Positions 12,625-37,772 of a stretch of DNA of 64,000 nucleotides are shown here, piece by piece; positions within the stretch are counted from its first letter, which is position 1; each line of letters starts with the position of its first letter. The stretch is taken from contig JAPYNQ010000020.1 in NCBI GenBank assembly GCA_028289815.1, positions 1 through 64,000 of the forward strand, read 5' to 3'. Source of the stretch: Gammaproteobacteria bacterium (GTDB taxonomy: Bacteria; Pseudomonadota; Gammaproteobacteria; JAJDYQ01). The notes under the pieces are model-generated. The model searched no databases. It saw nothing but the letters and a program-made list of their open reading frames with translations, and had not been told where the DNA came from. A program made the translations under genes and the position numbers.

Positions 12625-13281
12625 TTCTTATTTGTCTGGTTTATGCAGACTGTACTTTAGCTTCTTTCTGCAAAGTCTTTAGTTACCAAGCATATAGAGT
12701 CTGTCCAATTCGTCAAATCAGACTGGCCTGTGGTCAGTAGTTTTCAATAAGGGTTGTAGCCGACTCCTGTAAACCAGACACAGTAGCTGTTGGCTTTATC
12801 CTCCAGTGATCAAACATACTATCCCGATTGTGATATATCTGCGCCGCTTTTCAGACAGTATGGATGGCACCGATAATATCAAACAGATTGCTGGAAACAA
12901 GCAAGGTCACTTCTTTTCGAGGGGACAGTTTTTCCATTGGTACATCGTCAGGAACGGGCTTGAATGTCTTCAAGTGATCAACGCTGACCACCGATACAAT
13001 TGATTGCGCAAGCTCCGACTGTCCCAACAGATGTTGATCTGCTTATCCACTGTCACTCGAAAAAAAGCATACAGTCCATTCCAAAGGCGCGGTGTCAGCG
13101 GGGTGATACTGATATTCAATGTGGGCAGCCTGGTGCGCCAAGGCCGTTATCGCTTTCTTGTTCACCTTGCTTATCTTCTCTAAAAGGTTGATGATAAGCA
13201 GTTAAACAATGTTATTTACAGTCTCGCAAAAAACGGTATTGTCAGTCCATACCCTCCCAAAAACCACCAACAGTTTTTATC
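12625..13281. other. gene-less stretch between SulP and the DUF262 cassette
   Basis: About 650 bases with only short frames (for example 12806-13003) and no recognisable protein or RNA. It presumably contains the promoters of both flanking genes. The text looks like eroded coding DNA. Confidence 0.5.
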
Positions 13282-15072
13282 ATGAAGAACCCGACTGATA
13301 TGAAAGAAACCAGCATTTCATTGCGCCCGGTCAAAGCCCTCTTGACTGATGACACTGGTGAACCGGCTCGTTACTGGATACCCGCATACCAACGGGGCTA
13401 CCGCTGGACTCCGCTGCAAGTCACTCAGCTACTTGATGATATTCGTGACTTCATACGACGATCCAATCTTCAGCCAGAACACTACTATTGCTTGCAACCG
13501 CTTGTTATTAAAGTGATGTCAGACGGACGATTTGAGGTGGTTGATGGACAGCAACGACTAACGACATTGTTTCTAATACTGCGCCATTTCAATGAGCGAC
13601 TAGCCGAACCATACCGCTCGAAACTGTACTCGCTAGACTATGAAACACGTCCAAGTTTAGATGAGTTCCTGGAGGATCCTAGCGAGGATGCGTCCAGTGA
13701 AAATATTGACTTCTTCCATCTGTACCGTGCGATCCAGGCTATTGAGCAGTGGTTTGCAAAACATGAGAGTGAAGTTGAAGACATAAAGTCTGCGCTTCTT
13801 AACAAGACCAAGGTCATTTGGTTTACTCTTTCTGATAGCGATAATCCTGTGGATGCCTTCACACGTCTTAATATGGGCAAGATCCCTCTCACCAACGACG
13901 AGCTGATTCGTGCTCTGTTTCTGCGCCTTGCAGCAGACGAAGATAATGGACATGGACTTGCGCTGCGCATAGCCCATGAGTGGGACCAGTTGGAAAAAGC
14001 GTTGCAACAGGATGCCTTCTGGTATTTCCTGAGCAATGACCGGGCGCTAGGACACAATCGGATCGGGCTGATCTTTGAATTAGTCGCCTCAAATGAACTG
14101 ACCGGCCAATTGAAACAGGATGACTATGGAACTTTCCATGTTTTTAGTGAACGTCTCAAAAGCCAATCAGCGGAGCAAGGATGGCAAGGATGGCTTGAGG
14201 TCAAACAGACCTTCATGGCACTGGAAGAGTGGTATGAGGACCGTGAGCTGTTCCATGTGGTGGGTTTCCTGATTCATCAGGGTGTGGCAATCAATGGTTT
14301 GCTGGAGTCAGCTCGGAAGCGTCGAAAAGGTGATCTGGCCCGGGAATTGCTTTGCCAGGCCTTTAAGGAAGCCATAGGAGGTGATCTGCGTAAACTTGAC
14401 GAACAGGAATTGCGGGAGACCATTCGAGACCGCTGTGAGAGCATCAGCTATGTCAAGCAACGCGAGGCTATCCGCACAATTTTATTACTGTTCAACCTTG
14501 CCACTCTACTGGAAAATCAACGCTCCAATATGCGATTCCAGTTCGATAGCTTCAAGGGCGAGAAGTGGGACATTGAGCATGTTCGTTCTATTGAGAGGCA
14601 CCGCCCGGTACGTCATAACGAACGCAAGGCCTGGTTCGAAGGTTGCCGGGGCTACATACCTTCGCGCGAGGATAATCAGGAACTGGTAACGAGTATCGAT
14701 GGCTTTCTGGAACTTGCACAGGGGGAAGAAGCCGGTACCGAGTTCGATTCACTCTATGATCGTGTGTTGGCCTGTTTCAGGGAAGGTGATGAAGGCGGTG
14801 AGGACGGTCTTTCTAACCTGACCTTGCTCGACCGGAGCACAAACCGCAGCTATAAAAATGCCGTGTTCGCAGTCAAGCGACAGCGTTTGCTGGAACTCGA
14901 TAAATCAGGCACCTTCGTACCCCTTTGTACCCGCAATGTTTTCCTGAAGTGCTACAGTGTTCAAGTGAAAGACATCATATTCTGGAGTATGCAGGATGCA
15001 GAGGAATACGAGGAAGCGATCATCAAGACCCTGAGTCGCTTCTTTTTGCAAAGTGGAGGGATGGAAGCGTGA
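13282..15072 (+). CDS. DUF262/DUF1524 protein (GmrSD-like), first gene of a pair
   Basis: A 596-residue protein with the architecture of type IV restriction and related defence enzymes. The N-terminal DUF262 domain carries IPAYQRGYRW (~33-42) and the nucleotide-hydrolysis motif VDGQQRLTTLF (~87-97). The C-terminal DUF1524 domain is HNH-nuclease-like, with WDIEHV (~428-433) as the histidine motif and LSNLTLLDRSTNRSYKN (~510-526). In GmrSD and SspE, DUF262 couples NTP hydrolysis and recognition of modified DNA to the DUF1524 nuclease. This gene overlaps the second DUF262 gene by 4 bases. It is intact, unlike much nearby DNA. Defence is inferred from domains, not shown. Confidence 0.85.
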   Translation: MKNPTDMKETSISLRPVKALLTDDTGEPARYWIPAYQRGYRWTPLQVTQLLDDIRDFIRRSNLQPEHYYCLQPLVIKVMSDGRFEVVDGQQRLTTLFLILRHFNERLAEPYRSKLYSLDYETRPSLDEFLEDPSEDASSENIDFFHLYRAIQAIEQWFAKHESEVEDIKSALLNKTKVIWFTLSDSDNPVDAFTRLNMGKIPLTNDELIRALFLRLAADEDNGHGLALRIAHEWDQLEKALQQDAFWYFLSNDRALGHNRIGLIFELVASNELTGQLKQDDYGTFHVFSERLKSQSAEQGWQGWLEVKQTFMALEEWYEDRELFHVVGFLIHQGVAINGLLESARKRRKGDLARELLCQAFKEAIGGDLRKLDEQELRETIRDRCESISYVKQREAIRTILLLFNLATLLENQRSNMRFQFDSFKGEKWDIEHVRSIERHRPVRHNERKAWFEGCRGYIPSREDNQELVTSIDGFLELAQGEEAGTEFDSLYDRVLACFREGDEGGEDGLSNLTLLDRSTNRSYKNAVFAVKRQRLLELDKSGTFVPLCTRNVFLKCYSVQVKDIIFWSMQDAEEYEEAIIKTLSRFFLQSGGMEA

Positions 15073-17414
15073 GCAAAGATGGCACACAACTGATATTCAG
15101 CGAACTGCTTGCAGAGCATGGCCGCATCCAGGTGCCCTTGATTCAACGTGACTATGCGCAGGGTCGGAGTGATCAGGAGGAAGTTAGAGATAGGTTTCTC
15201 GATGCTTTGTATGAAGCACTGGCCCTTCCCGTAGATTCGGATGAGTTGCCACTCAATCTTGATTTCATCTACGGCAGTGTGAAAGGCGCTAATCCGTCCA
15301 GCTTCCAGCCACTGGATGGTCAGCAACGCCTGACAACGCTTTTTCTTTTACATTGGTATCTGGCCTGGCTTGATGGATGCAGCGAGAGGTTTAGCGAGCT
15401 TTTTTGCGAGGATGGGAAAGTTTCAAGGTTTAGCTATCGGGTTCGTTCCAGCAGCGAGGAGTTTTTCGACAAGCTGGTGGGATTTTCACCCGAACAAAAA
15501 CCAGGAGAGGTGGAACGCCTTGGTCCGCTCTTGCAGGATCAGCCGTGGTACTACCGTCACTGGAGACTGGACCCCACAGTCCAGTCGGTGCTGGTTATGC
15601 TCAATACCATACATGAGCGCTTTAAGGACACGCATGGACTCTATGCGCGACTGACTGATAAAAAGCAGCCCGCCATCACATTCCAGTTGTTGGACCTCGA
15701 TGATTTCGGTCTTTCGGACGACCTTTACATCAAAATGAATGCACGCGGAAAACTACTGACGCCATTTGAAACCTTCAAGGCCCGCTATGAGCAGATGTTG
15801 CAAGATCATTTCCCGGATAAAACTCGTCTGCTAGACGGACAGTCGGTTTCAATTTCCGAATACTTCGCGCGGTGCATGGATACCCGCTGGGCGGATTTTT
15901 TCTGGCCATTCCGTGATCAGTATACCCATGTTTTTGACGCAGCAGTGATGAATGTATTTCGAGTGGTCATTCTGATCACACGATCCACTGAAGAGTCATC
16001 ATTCACAAAAGATGTGCGTGACCTTCGAGACTCACGTCAGAAAAACAGTTACCATTTCTTTCATAAGCGCGGCTGGCTGGATGTTCCATTTGCAGAAACA
16101 CTGATTACTTTGCTGGATGCCTGGAGCGGTGAGTCTGGTGACTTTACACAATTTCTCCCCGATAAGCGTTGTTCCGATGAGAAGGATATTCTTGAAAAGA
16201 TTTTGGAAGAACCAACCTCTCTTGACTATGACGATCTTCTCCAACTTGCGGCTTATGTACAGTTTCTCCGCGTACATAAAGGTGCTATCAACCCAACGAC
16301 ATTTCAAGAATGGATGCGGGTGGTGTTCAACCTGTCGGTGAACACGGAATATAATCGGACAGAGGACTTTCAGCGCAGCCTATCATCCATTACTGAGCTT
16401 AAGCCACAAATGGCAACCATATTAGATCATTTGGCTGACCCCGAAACCGCTATCAGATCTTTCTTTCAACTGCAGGTCACAGAAGAAAAAATAAAGGCAC
16501 AGCTTCTCTTGTCAGACGATAGCTGGAGACCACTAATTGATAGGGCAGAAGCGCATGGCTACTTCCGGGGGCAGATTGGTTTTCTGCTGAAGTTCGCGGG
16601 GGTCGAAGCGGACACTGCCGACACCCTGAGGTTCCAGGCACCATTCACTGACTACCTCAACAAGGCCAGTGTGATGTTTAAAGACGGTGGCCTAGACAGC
16701 CTTCCAGACTTTAGATGGGAGCGTGCATTGCTATCGTACGGTAATTATATGTTGAGGAATAGTAATGGTCGGAATGAATCATTTTTAGTTAACACACGAT
16801 CAGAGCCACACAGCTGGAAACGGCTACTGCGCGATTCATCATCAGGGTCGGAGCAGGGCAGGATTCTTCAAAAACTGTGGAAGTCACTGTCTGGAACGTC
16901 ATACATTAGTGAGCAGTTGGACAATATTATTACCAACGCATCCGGGCTGGAACCGTGGCGCACTGCCTTGATTAAAACTCCCGCCGCTATAGAATACTGT
17001 TGGGGAAAAATGATTCGTCGTACAGAAGACCGAGTCTATTTGCTTAGAAAAACTCAAACCAATGGTGCCCATGCAGAGCTATTTAGCTACTGCTTTTACA
17101 GGGATGTAATTAAGAAAAAGCAGTTTCATGTTTTATACTCGAAGTACTGGGAAAGCAAAACCGAAAACATATTACCTAGTATCGAGCTCGACTTCATGAA
17201 GCAGCAGCAAATATTCTGGGTAGATTACTATGGTGCCGATAAATATCGGCTTTATACACCTGAGGAAAATCCTCCCGGCATCTTATCGTCATTATTGCAG
17301 GAATCTGGCTTTGAAAAATCAGGAAAATTTTTTCAAAAGATCTGTTCAATAGAATTTATTGAGAACAACATTATCGAGCTGGACCAAAAACTGACAGGCT
17401 TGGATGAAGCATGA
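15069..17414 (+). CDS. second DUF262-domain protein, partner of the upstream gene
   Basis: A 781-residue protein. GTG at 15069 overlaps the upstream TGA as GTGA and has AGTGGAGGG just ahead, which fixes the start; the frame extends further upstream but is not used. DUF262 motifs are VPLIQRDYAQGR (~23-34), LDGQQRLTTLFLLHWYLAWL (~82-101) and YIKMNARGKLLTPFETFKAR (~220). The remaining ~500 residues have no HNH motif I can see and may be a recognition or regulatory region. Translational coupling to the nuclease-bearing first protein suggests a complex. A two-protein restriction or anti-phage system is the best guess. Confidence 0.82.
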   Translation: MSKDGTQLIFSELLAEHGRIQVPLIQRDYAQGRSDQEEVRDRFLDALYEALALPVDSDELPLNLDFIYGSVKGANPSSFQPLDGQQRLTTLFLLHWYLAWLDGCSERFSELFCEDGKVSRFSYRVRSSSEEFFDKLVGFSPEQKPGEVERLGPLLQDQPWYYRHWRLDPTVQSVLVMLNTIHERFKDTHGLYARLTDKKQPAITFQLLDLDDFGLSDDLYIKMNARGKLLTPFETFKARYEQMLQDHFPDKTRLLDGQSVSISEYFARCMDTRWADFFWPFRDQYTHVFDAAVMNVFRVVILITRSTEESSFTKDVRDLRDSRQKNSYHFFHKRGWLDVPFAETLITLLDAWSGESGDFTQFLPDKRCSDEKDILEKILEEPTSLDYDDLLQLAAYVQFLRVHKGAINPTTFQEWMRVVFNLSVNTEYNRTEDFQRSLSSITELKPQMATILDHLADPETAIRSFFQLQVTEEKIKAQLLLSDDSWRPLIDRAEAHGYFRGQIGFLLKFAGVEADTADTLRFQAPFTDYLNKASVMFKDGGLDSLPDFRWERALLSYGNYMLRNSNGRNESFLVNTRSEPHSWKRLLRDSSSGSEQGRILQKLWKSLSGTSYISEQLDNIITNASGLEPWRTALIKTPAAIEYCWGKMIRRTEDRVYLLRKTQTNGAHAELFSYCFYRDVIKKKQFHVLYSKYWESKTENILPSIELDFMKQQQIFWVDYYGADKYRLYTPEENPPGILSSLLQESGFEKSGKFFQKICSIEFIENNIIELDQKLTGLDEA

Positions 17415-19610: not shown

Positions 19611-20071
19611 CTTACCACCAGCGTCATGGATTATAACAGGTATTCTGAATCACTTAGTGGTCAGCACCTTGATTAGCAGGATCCTCTCGAATTACTCAAA
19701 AATAAGAAAACGCCAAAACCTGTTGCGCAGAACCACAAAGGGCGTTGTACAGTGCCCAGAGTTTTCCGGGATACTGGCTATACAATAGAGTTGCTGCGCT
19801 TTGCGCTGGAGTCGCCCGCCACGGTTTTTTTGAGGTTCCCGCAATGCGATAACTGGTCTCTAGAATGCCTTCTTTATTATCCATACACCGGTTCCAGATT
19901 CAATATGCAGTTCGCGAGGTTATCGAACATCTCATAAGACTACTCTGACTACTATCTCAAAATGAGCTTGTAGAGAATTCTGGCTAAGTTAAGGGTTCTT
20001 ATGATACACTGATGTATTGCTAGAATCAATACTACGTATGAGTCCACCACAAACTGCACTTTAGTTATTAT
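19611..20071. other. gene-less stretch
   Basis: Short frames only. A minus-strand frame at 19696-19884 has no known motif. It probably contains the promoter of the FHA/PP2C operon, plus eroded mobile-element DNA next to the IS481-type relic. Confidence 0.4.
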
Positions 20072-20258
20072 GGCTGATAATGTAGAGCACAGGTGTTTAT
20101 TAATCCCAGTACTCTGTGCGGTCGAATACCGTTGTACCTGACCAGCCAATCGGCGAATTTTTCGTTAAATGCCTCCAGGTCAGTAAATAGCAGGTTCTCG
20201 TGGAAGTCCACGAATAATTCCTGGAGAATGTCGTCGCGAAACTTGGTGCCAGAGTATT
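20072..20258 (-). mobile_element. IS481-type integrase/transposase relic, C-terminal part
   Basis: On the minus strand, about 60 codons read FRDDILQELFVDFHENLLFT, DLEAFNEKFADWLVRYN and RPHRVLGL before a stop. This is the tail of the rve integrase core of IS481/IS3-like transposases, including the conserved catalytic-side glutamine/glutamate helix and the RPH.LG motif. Everything N-terminal is missing, and the fragment abuts the IS5 relic. It is dead. Confidence 0.62.
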
Positions 20259-20892
20259 AAGCAACGTATTTGAATAACAGCCACAAAGGAGGCGGTATTT
20301 TTGCATAGCGTGTCGCAATACCGCACCAGCGTTTCAAGTGCAAAAAAAGCATTCTCCACCAAGCGCCTCAAACGATACAGATAACGGTCATAGTCTCTCG
20401 CTGTTCTTTCGGTTCCACTTGAGCGGAACGACCGGTTCAATCCCTTGTTGGTCACAATAAACCAGGATTTCATCGGTATCATAAACGCAGCCGGCTAATA
20501 GCATCTCGGCATCCATGCCCTCAATTAAGATCAAAGCCGAATACAATCTGTTGCGGTACTCGGAGTGTGGCAGACCATGCGCATCCAAGGCCAGATATGG
20601 CTTCGTGTTAAGCCCTCTTTTGTGCCATTCATCGCCGGATTACCACCTTTAGTTCCTGCCGCATGGGCATGTGCTTTGATATGACTGGCATCGACCATCA
20701 GATACTCGTAATCCGGCTCCTTAATGGGCTGCTTAAGCAACCCCCCTCTCAGACTCTGTTATCGTGCCAACGGCAAAAGCGCCGGTTATCGTGTGCGATA
20801 TTGCCCCAGCTTCCTTTTCTGTCCGGCAGGTGGGGTTCTAATAAAGCCCAAGCATGATCGGAAATGTCGTGGCGATGATGAGAATCTGCCAT
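20259..20892 (-). mobile_element. IS5-family (IS427/IS1031-like) transposase relic
   Basis: Starting at ATG 20892 on the minus strand, the pieces read MADSHHRHDISDHAWALLEP, then DYEYLMVDASHIKAHAHAAG, GGNPAM, YDTDEI, PVVPLKWNRKN, RDYDRYLYRLRRLVENAF and NTASFVAVIQIRCLILW. The order matches IS5-family transposases of the IS427 group, but the pieces lie in different frames. About 40 codons around the usual INAVFWILRTGAPWRDLP block are missing, with the junction between two NRRF/HRRF-like sites. The element is dead. Confidence 0.78.
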
Positions 20893-21521
20893 TTGATTTC
20901 CCCAGTGAGTAGTGGTATAATGGACACTATCGTACCTCACCGTAACGTATGACGACACTATTTAGTACATTTGATAACCAGGTCAGTCTATTATCGGGGA
21001 GGCCGCAGTAGACATAGTGCCTGACAAGTGTTGATGGTTCCAGCCTGCAAAGCCGACCGGAACCAGCTCGTTTGATGATACGCCACACGATACCATGCGC
21101 CGCGCCAGTGGATTGGCTGACTGCCCGATATATTAATGCGCCTGAAGCAGCAGACAAATCTTCTCCTGCCGCTGTGCATGGGTGTAATGACGACCTGAGG
21201 CTTACGAGGAGCGGTCTACCTAACCTTCACAGCGATACCGGGCCAGTATTACCCGCGGGTCGCAGGCGCTCTCGCCTCCGAAATTTGAGTAGCCTCTTCG
21301 ACGTAGAGGTGCTTAATTCCAAAATGTGTTATGTCAATATCGCTCGACCTTCAGGTGTTAATCAGGCATTCTTATGCCAGTTGATTCGGGACTCTCTTTC
21401 GCTGTTAAAGCTTTCATTCTTGATATTGCCGCATGAGAGCGAGGCGAGCAGCCTAGCGAAAAATCGCAGATAGAGGTAGTTCCGGGCGATCTGCTCGTGT
21501 AAGAAGTTAAATAGAAACAAC
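20893..21521. other. gene-less stretch upstream of folC
   Basis: About 630 bases. A plus-strand frame (21072-21473) and overlapping minus-strand frames have no recognisable motif. In many gammaproteobacteria accD or trp genes precede folC; I see no trace of them. Confidence 0.45.
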
Positions 21522-36130: not shown

Positions 36131-37006
36131 ATGACTTATACGTCTGACTGTTGTGAAACCAGCCCGACTGCTGGCCCGATTCATGGTGTTGGCATCGGGT
36201 TGCGCTCACAACATTACCGATATATCTTGGCTAACAAGCCTTCAACCCCTTGGCTGGAGGCACTAACCGATAACTACATGGGAGACGGTGGTCAGCCGCT
36301 GGGCTATCTGGAGCAGATTAGAAGTCTCTACCCTATCACTTTTCACGGTGTCGGTATGTCTCTGGGGTCGCCTGGAGCGGTGAATAAAGCCTACCTGCGA
36401 CGATTAAAGGAAAGAATACGGCAATTTGAACCAGTGTGGGTATCTGACCACACTAGCTGGAGTGCCTGTCACCGGCATAACAGCAATGAATTGCTACCAC
36501 TTCCCTATACGGAAGAAGGCATTTCTCATATGGCTGGTAAAATCGCCGAGGCGCAGGATTTTCTTGGCGAGCGCCTGTTGATTGAAAACGTATCCTGTTA
36601 CGTTGAGTTCAGGGACTCGCAGATGCCTGAATGGGAGTTTATTAACGGTATTGCGGATGAGGCCGATTGCCATATACTGCTGGATATTAACAATATTTAC
36701 GTTAACGCCTTTAATAACGACTGCCAAGCAGATGATTTTATTCAGGGAATAAGCCCCGAACGCATACGTGAAATACACTTGGCGGGTTATGAAGATCGGA
36801 AGACCCATTTACTCGATACGCATGGTCAAGAGGTCCATCAACCAGTCTGGGATTTGTATCTTCGTGCTGTTGAACGGCTTGGCCCGATTCCAACACTGAT
36901 TGAATGGGATACGGATGTTCCTGAGTACCCGATACTACAACAGCAAGCCGGCATTGCCGAAGGCATTATCTCAATGTCTTCCAAATCGCATGCCCACGCT
37001 GCCTGA
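36131..37006 (+). CDS. bufB1: MNIO (DUF692) multinuclear iron-dependent oxidase
   Basis: A 291-residue TIM-barrel enzyme that modifies cysteines of the precursor with an iron cluster and oxygen. Conserved metal-ligand blocks are visible: TFHGVGMSLGS, VSDHTSWSACH, LIENVSCYVEF, LLDINNIYVNAFNN, EIHLAGYEDR, LDTHGQEVH and TLIEWDTDVPEYP. The length fits the family. It lies 23 bases after bufA1 and overlaps the next gene by 17 bases. No ligand appears to be missing. Confidence 0.93.
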   Translation: MTYTSDCCETSPTAGPIHGVGIGLRSQHYRYILANKPSTPWLEALTDNYMGDGGQPLGYLEQIRSLYPITFHGVGMSLGSPGAVNKAYLRRLKERIRQFEPVWVSDHTSWSACHRHNSNELLPLPYTEEGISHMAGKIAEAQDFLGERLLIENVSCYVEFRDSQMPEWEFINGIADEADCHILLDINNIYVNAFNNDCQADDFIQGISPERIREIHLAGYEDRKTHLLDTHGQEVHQPVWDLYLRAVERLGPIPTLIEWDTDVPEYPILQQQAGIAEGIISMSSKSHAHAA

Positions 37007-37772
37007 AATACAAAAAAAATTCTTCGCTGGCCTCTTCGGCAACGACAGGCAGGTTACCGATGCGTTGCTGCCCTCAGCGACACTATCAGCAGAGGCACGC
37101 TTTGATATCTATCGGAGTAGTGTTTTCGGCCTGTATACCAAGGTGCTTGCTGAAATATATCCGGTTTGCAAGCGGTTGCTGGGAGTACACTTTTTTGATA
37201 GTATGGTGAACCATTACATTGCTGAATATCCGTCAGTTTCTGCTAATGTCATCGACTATGGAGGGCAGTTCCCGGAGTTCCTGGAGGACTTTGAACCCGT
37301 ATCCGAATTGCTTTATCTTACTGATGTCGCTCGCCTAGAATGGGCCTGGCATCGTGTATTCAATGCGTGTGACTTCACACCGGTGGATACATCTGCGCTA
37401 CTGTCGCTCAGCGAGGAGCAGCTGTACGAGACGGTGTTTATGCTGCCCCCCGCGAGCAGGCTATTGCATTCAAAGTATCCTGTCGATACTATCTGGCAGC
37501 AGAACCAGCCGGAGATAGAACAACCCTCCGATATCCAGCTGGAAATACAGGATAACTATCTCTTGGTACGGCGCCTCGGTTACGAGATCAGAATCGACAG
37601 GATGAGTCGCGAACACTGGTTGTTGTTAGACTCAGTAAGTCAGGGGCTAACCCTAGGTCAGTTGAGTGAACAGCATGATAATGTGGATTTGCAGATATTT
37701 CTTGTCGAAGCCATCAGATACCAGTGGTTCAGTGATTTTTCAATAACAAATCGGAGTTCAAGTCATGTATGA
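36990..37772 (+). CDS. bufC1: DUF2063 partner protein of the MNIO enzyme
   Basis: A 260-residue protein. The N-terminal DUF2063 part (~1-95: FFAGLFGNDRQ, RFDIYRSSVFGLYTKVLAEI, YPVCKRLLG, FIEYG-like VIDYGGQFPEFL) is followed by a C-terminal region resembling a RiPP recognition element. It is thought to deliver the precursor to the MNIO enzyme. ATG 36990 lies within the end of bufB1 and gives the usual MPTLPEIQKKF start. It overlaps the DoxX gene by 8 bases. Confidence 0.9.
   Translation: MPTLPEIQKKFFAGLFGNDRQVTDALLPSATLSAEARFDIYRSSVFGLYTKVLAEIYPVCKRLLGVHFFDSMVNHYIAEYPSVSANVIDYGGQFPEFLEDFEPVSELLYLTDVARLEWAWHRVFNACDFTPVDTSALLSLSEEQLYETVFMLPPASRLLHSKYPVDTIWQQNQPEIEQPSDIQLEIQDNYLLVRRLGYEIRIDRMSREHWLLLDSVSQGLTLGQLSEQHDNVDLQIFLVEAIRYQWFSDFSITNRSSSHV

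What the first reader, a model, noticed from the sequence alone, without database searches (positions are those of the whole stretch)
13282..17414. Translationally coupled pair of DUF262 proteins: candidate two-component restriction/anti-phage system
Two intact genes share DUF262 motifs (QRGYRW or QRDYAQ; DGQQRLTT), but only the first has the HNH-like DUF1524 end (WDIEHV, NLTLLDRSTN). They overlap as GTGA, are flanked by gene-less DNA and an IS1634 relic, and stay intact amid decay. Known DUF262-DUF1524 enzymes (GmrSD, SspE) are modification-dependent nucleases. A split architecture with a 781-residue second DUF262 protein lacking a visible nuclease may be a distinct system: one NTPase-nuclease plus one NTPase-sensor.
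Basis: partly seen in the sequence, partly recalled or inferred. Interest (0 to 1): 0.75.

Follow-up and report, generated by a model that had tools for sequence, protein, structure and literature searches.

The report
GrwAB-type two-protein anti-phage restriction system
Two overlapping genes encode a matched protein pair that most likely senses and cuts chemically modified phage DNA; it is a new, well-preserved member of the two-gene GrwAB type of restriction system described in 2025, not a new kind of system.

Summary
A (13282-15072, DUF262 + DUF1524/His-Me nuclease) and B (15069-17414, DUF262 plus about 540 residues without a known domain) are intact, overlap by 4 bases (GTGA) and evolve under purifying selection. 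This order and anatomy (nuclease-bearing gene first, long DUF262 partner second) is that of GrwAB, shown in 2025 to be a two-protein, modification-dependent restriction system needing both proteins (PMC12137116). The catalytic landmarks published for GrwA and GrwB fall at nearly the same positions here. The pairing is almost obligatory: the same 15 plasmid records of 72,556 hold full-length A and B relatives; all 15 genome and viral relatives of B examined have A just upstream; only one related lone A was seen. Relatives span many phyla and often sit in or beside type I restriction loci or other defence genes. The window's own copy stands alone among housekeeping genes. A good model of B (pLDDT 85) shows no second nuclease, only a weak, unproven resemblance of its C-terminal part to the T4 MotA DNA-binding domain. 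V. cholerae GrwAB itself could not be compared directly. Verdict: new member of a known kind.

The parts
13282..15072 (+). Gene A: DUF262 (GmrSD_N) NTPase domain plus C-terminal DUF1524/His-Me finger nuclease; GrwA-like. Likely true start ATG 13300.
   Evidence: homologues start at the residue encoded at 13300
13543..13557 (+). DGQQR motif of A (residues 88-92), NTP pocket
   Evidence: invariant in the 9 aligned A proteins
14566..14844 (+). His-Me finger landmarks of A: WDIEH (H433) to NLTLLDRSTN (N512, N521)
   Evidence: counterparts of GrwA H431, N521, N530
15055..15072 (+). GGAGG ribosome-binding site inside the end of A, then GTGA overlap (A stop / B start)
   Evidence: read; overlap compared
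15069..17414 (+). Gene B: N-terminal DUF262 NTPase domain followed by about 540 residues without a known domain; GrwB-like
15315..15329 (+). DGQQR motif of B (residues 83-87)
   Evidence: invariant in the 10 aligned B proteins
17064..17411 (+). C-terminal alpha/beta domain of B (about residues 666-781), fast evolving; possible DNA-contact module (weak lead)

Best explanation
The pair is a GrwAB-type, two-protein, modification-dependent (type IV) restriction system. A and B are co-translated and probably form one complex. Their DUF262 domains bind and hydrolyse NTP and, together with B's long C-terminal part, sense modified bases in incoming phage DNA; NTP turnover then licenses A's C-terminal His-Me finger nuclease (H433, N512, N521) to cut that DNA. 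Shown here: gene anatomy, intact motifs, purifying selection, near-obligatory pairing of A with B across phyla, and frequent defence-locus context of relatives. Shown by others on V. cholerae GrwAB: both proteins, both DGQQR arginines and the nuclease residues are needed, and target phages carry glycosylated hydroxymethylcytosine or 7-deazaguanine; escapers are altered in the modification enzyme. Inferred: that this copy has the same activity, that A and B bind each other, and that B contributes to sensing.
For: Domain hits. Landmarks: window A R92, H433, N512/N521 (9 apart) against GrwA R81, H431, N521/N530 (9 apart); window B R87 against GrwB R86 (PMC12137116); homologues fall in the same range. 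Same gene order as GrwAB, opposite to TgvAB. The same 15 plasmid records hold both proteins. All B relatives in 3 genome and 12 viral loci have A just upstream, usually overlapping by 1-4 bases; so do further plasmid pairs. The closest pair sits between hsdS and hsdR; others lie beside hsdM, hsdS, hsdR, Hachiman, Qat, a LeoA-type dynamin-like GTPase, TmtA and WYL genes. dN/dS 0.14 and 0.18. Frequency 2 of 274 in class and 1 of 399 in phylum samples (own genome included), of the order of the 1% or less reported for GrwAB.
Against: V. cholerae GrwA and GrwB sequences were not in the collections, so the link rests on architecture, order and residue positions, not on an alignment. No activity data for this copy. 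DUF1524 scores just under the Pfam cut-off. The window has no other recognised defence system. B's C-terminal third is fast evolving and its role unknown.
Confidence: 0.85

Rival explanations
1. A distinct two-gene DUF262 system, outside GrwAB, that shares only the GmrSD domains and gene order and senses a different cue.
For: Direct sequence comparison with V. cholerae GrwAB was not possible; B's C-terminal part matches no Pfam family; two-gene DUF262 systems exist in several unrelated forms (a different pair in L088).
Against: Order, lengths, catalytic positions and the 9-residue N-N spacing coincide with GrwAB.
Confidence: 0.1
2. A is a self-sufficient GmrSD-like enzyme and B is a hitch-hiking paralogue or regulator.
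For: A alone has both GmrSD domains; one related gene stands alone in a viral contig (L083).
Against: Apart from that lone gene, A and B go together across many phyla; B keeps its NTPase motifs and is under purifying selection; in GrwAB both proteins are required (PMC12137116).
Confidence: 0.05
3. A non-defence NTPase pair or an inactive leftover in a decaying genome.
For: The copy stands alone among housekeeping genes next to a pseudogene.
Against: Both genes intact with low dN/dS and complete catalytic motifs; relatives cluster with defence genes.
Confidence: 0.05

Closest known systems
GrwAB of V. cholerae WASA lineage (PMC12137116)
   Same: Two-gene operon; first gene DUF262 + DUF1524, second gene DUF262 plus long unknown C-terminal part; catalytic residues at nearly equal positions; similar rarity.
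   Different: Host and genomic setting; direct sequence identity not measured; substrate range of this copy unknown.
TgvAB of V. cholerae VPI-2 (PMC11411939)
   Same: Two DUF262 proteins, one with DUF1524; embedded in a type I RM locus, as is the closest relative of the window pair (L002).
   Different: Nuclease is on the second gene (TgvB); TgvB H571 and N602 are 31 apart against 79 (H433 to N512) here; PMC12137116 states that TgvA and GrwB differ beyond DUF262; no type I RM genes flank the window pair.
GmrSD-ECOR17 (PMC12373910)
   Same: Two GmrS-like genes, both required, HNH nuclease on one.
   Different: Nuclease-bearing gene comes second (GmrSD2); described there as extremely diverged from other GmrSDs.
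Single-chain GmrSD, BrxU, SspE, DndI
   Same: A has the same DUF262-linker-DUF1524 plan; profile matches to 9jfl (DndI entry), 6jiv (SspE) and 7p9k (BrxU).
   Different: These carry both domains in one polypeptide and no second DUF262 protein; here a second DUF262 protein is encoded alongside.

Membership tests
GrwAB two-gene type IV restriction | First gene: DUF262 with QR, DGQQR, FxxxN plus DUF1524 His-Me finger | tested here: met
   DUF1524 22.9 bits against cut-off 23, catalytic residues invariant
GrwAB two-gene type IV restriction | Second gene: N-terminal DUF262 with QR, DGQQR, FxxxN, then a long part without DUF1524 | tested here: met
   third motif reads YIKMN instead of FxxxN
GrwAB two-gene type IV restriction | Catalytic residues near GrwA R81, H431, N521, N530 and GrwB R86 | tested here: met
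   window A R92, H433, N512, N521 and B R87; relatives in the same range
GrwAB two-gene type IV restriction | Sequence homology to V. cholerae GrwA and GrwB | not testable with these tools
   sequences not in the collections; supplement look-ups not available
GrwAB two-gene type IV restriction | Both proteins needed; restricts phages with modified DNA | not testable with these tools
   needs plaque assays; pairing is only indirect support
TgvAB | DUF262-only gene first, DUF262 + DUF1524 gene second | tested here: not met
   order is reversed (PMC11411939)
TgvAB | Embedded in a type I RM operon | tested here: not met
   no hsdS/hsdR trace in the window, although the closest relative is embedded
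Single-chain GmrSD/BrxU/SspE | One polypeptide suffices, no second DUF262 partner | tested here: not met
   conserved partner B in nearly all relatives; sufficiency itself not tested

The most novel reading that the evidence does not exclude
The C-terminal alpha/beta domain of GrwB-type partners is a double-wing-like module, as in the T4 MotA DNA-binding domain, which reads DNA carrying glucosylated hydroxymethylcytosine. The two-gene systems would then owe their wide modification range to a dedicated sensor domain on the partner, with A as cutter. Evidence is only weak fold matches (PDB MotA E 2-4, prob up to 0.57, TM by target 0.43-0.49; viral MotA prob 0.77) with type III secretion chaperones scoring nearly alike, and no sequence-profile support.
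Probability: 0.1. Interest if true: 0.6.

Novelty: new member of a known kind. Interest (0 to 1): 0.27.

Why it matters
It adds a chromosomal, evolutionarily maintained example of GrwAB-type restriction and shows that the two proteins travel together in Gamma-, Alpha- and Betaproteobacteria, Campylobacterota, Bacillota, Actinomycetota, Bacteroidota, Spirochaetota and a WOR-3 genome, often in or beside type I restriction loci. How such systems recognise modified DNA is an open question; the conserved and variable parts of B listed here give places to test.

Tried and rejected
Defence island in the window: rejected, PADLOC scan of 36 window ORFs gave only single minor-component matches (mad3, TIR-type effector) and Pfam showed housekeeping families. 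Relic of hsdS or hsdR beside the pair: none. IS1634 relic: not confirmed by NCBIfam, own and related genomes, or plasmids. Single-sequence model of B: useless, pLDDT 34, a wasted job; replaced by a 14-sequence model, pLDDT 85. MotA homology of B's C-terminal part by profile comparison: none. Phage relatives of B: none in 50,697 phage records, although a dozen loci lie in viral contigs, where host DNA or prophage cargo cannot be told apart here.

Full report
Observation. A encodes 596 residues from ATG 13282; homologues begin at the residue encoded by ATG 13300, so the protein is probably 590 residues. B encodes 781 residues from GTG 15069. The stop of A and the start of B overlap as GTGA, with a GGAGG ribosome-binding site nine bases before the start. 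Pfam finds the GmrSD N-terminal domain in both (E 1.4e-31 and 1.1e-19) and the GmrSD C-terminal domain in A only, 0.1 bit below its cut-off. The His-Me residues H433, N512 and N521 of A are invariant in nine aligned proteins, and the DGQQR motifs of both proteins are invariant in all aligned relatives. Against the closest relative, synonymous change is near saturation while dN/dS is about 0.14 for A and 0.18 for B. The genes are therefore real, intact and selected.

Surroundings. Upstream lies a sulfate permease gene (minus strand), then a broken haloacid dehalogenase type II gene (12737-13063, minus) whose intact form flanks the permease in a genome of the same genus, then a repeat of about 100 bases present in several other contigs. 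Downstream are FHA and PP2C genes. No other recognised defence system is encoded in the window. Two genomes of the same genus lack B, so the pair is a sporadic acquisition or a sporadic loss.

Relatives. B has relatives of 68, 46 and 44% identity in a gammaproteobacterial MAG, a Halomonas and a WOR-3 MAG, 15 plasmid records and a dozen viral-contig loci. A search with A finds full-length relatives in the same 15 plasmid records and no others; its remaining 437 records match only partly. In the 3 genome and 12 viral loci, A lies directly upstream of B, usually with a 1-4 base overlap; L077 and a contig of G199 show the same. One plasmid pair has an IS3 element between the genes. A single A-like gene without B was seen (L083). 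B was never seen without A.

Defence context of relatives. The closest pair sits between hsdS and hsdR with overlapping ends (L002). Another lies between hsdM and hsdR (L021), and two precede hsdM (L012, L014). Others neighbour Hachiman, Qat, a LeoA-type dynamin-like GTPase, TmtA, an IetA-like ATPase and WYL genes. The window copy lacks such neighbours and no trace of hsdS or hsdR remains beside it.

What it is. GrwAB, described in 2025, has GrwA (DUF262 + DUF1524) first and GrwB (DUF262 plus a long unknown part) second; both are required, mutation of GrwA R81, H431, N521, N530 or GrwB R86 abolishes defence, the system restricts phages with glycosylated hydroxymethylcytosine or 7-deazaguanine, and escapers are changed in the modification enzyme (PMC12137116). 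The window pair has the same order and architecture, with A R92, H433, N512, N521 (same 9-residue N-N spacing) and B R87. TgvAB and GmrSD-ECOR17 carry the nuclease on the second gene. Sampled frequency (2 of 274, 1 of 399, own genome included) is of the order of, or below, the reported 1%.

How it works. By analogy with GrwAB and with BrxU and SspE, NTP binding and hydrolysis by the DUF262 domains probably couples recognition of modified DNA to the nuclease of A. The share of B in recognition is inferred. A 14-sequence AlphaFold model of B (pLDDT 85, pTM 0.65) places an alpha-helical region after DUF262 and a C-terminal alpha/beta domain. The only significant fold matches are to chains of a DndI entry (E 7e-5 and 5e-4), at low TM-score. 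Below significance, the T4 MotA DNA-binding domain appears repeatedly, alongside type III secretion chaperones; the tool does not say which residues of B are aligned, and the C-terminal part is inferred from its strand and helix order. Profile comparison with MotA gave nothing. MotA accommodates or reads glucosylated DNA (PMC6755090), which makes the lead attractive, but it is unproven.

Verdict. It is a new member, with modest added value from the demonstration of near-obligatory pairing across phyla.

Noticed in passing
12737-13063 (minus): Haloacid dehalogenase type II pseudogene with in-frame stops; an intact relative flanks the same permease in a genome of the same genus (G001:C81).
   Followed up: yes
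13123-13226: Short repeat found at several other places in the genome (71-92% identity), some near contig ends; nature unknown.
   Followed up: partly
20036-20966: Dispersed repeat with many partial copies across the genome.
   Followed up: no
36131-37772: MbnB/TglH/ChrH-family (PF05114) gene followed by a DUF2063 gene, a possible RiPP-modification pair.
   Followed up: no
own genome G000:C17:18408-19046 and G000:C11:14026-14681 (L031, L032): Two further DUF262 genes outside the window; the C11 copy is broken by a TGA and a frame change, the C17 copy is split over several frames.
   Followed up: partly
L083:781-2301: A-like single DUF262-DUF1524 gene without B in a viral contig, with H and N only 17 residues apart: a compact relative that may act alone.
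   Followed up: partly
L088:5935-9424: Different two-gene DUF262 pair with the stronger A-like match on the second gene, as in TgvAB order.
   Followed up: no
L103:2935-8221: A and B relatives separated by an IS3 element in Paenarthrobacter, and B split over two annotated genes: a probably inactivated pair.
   Followed up: no
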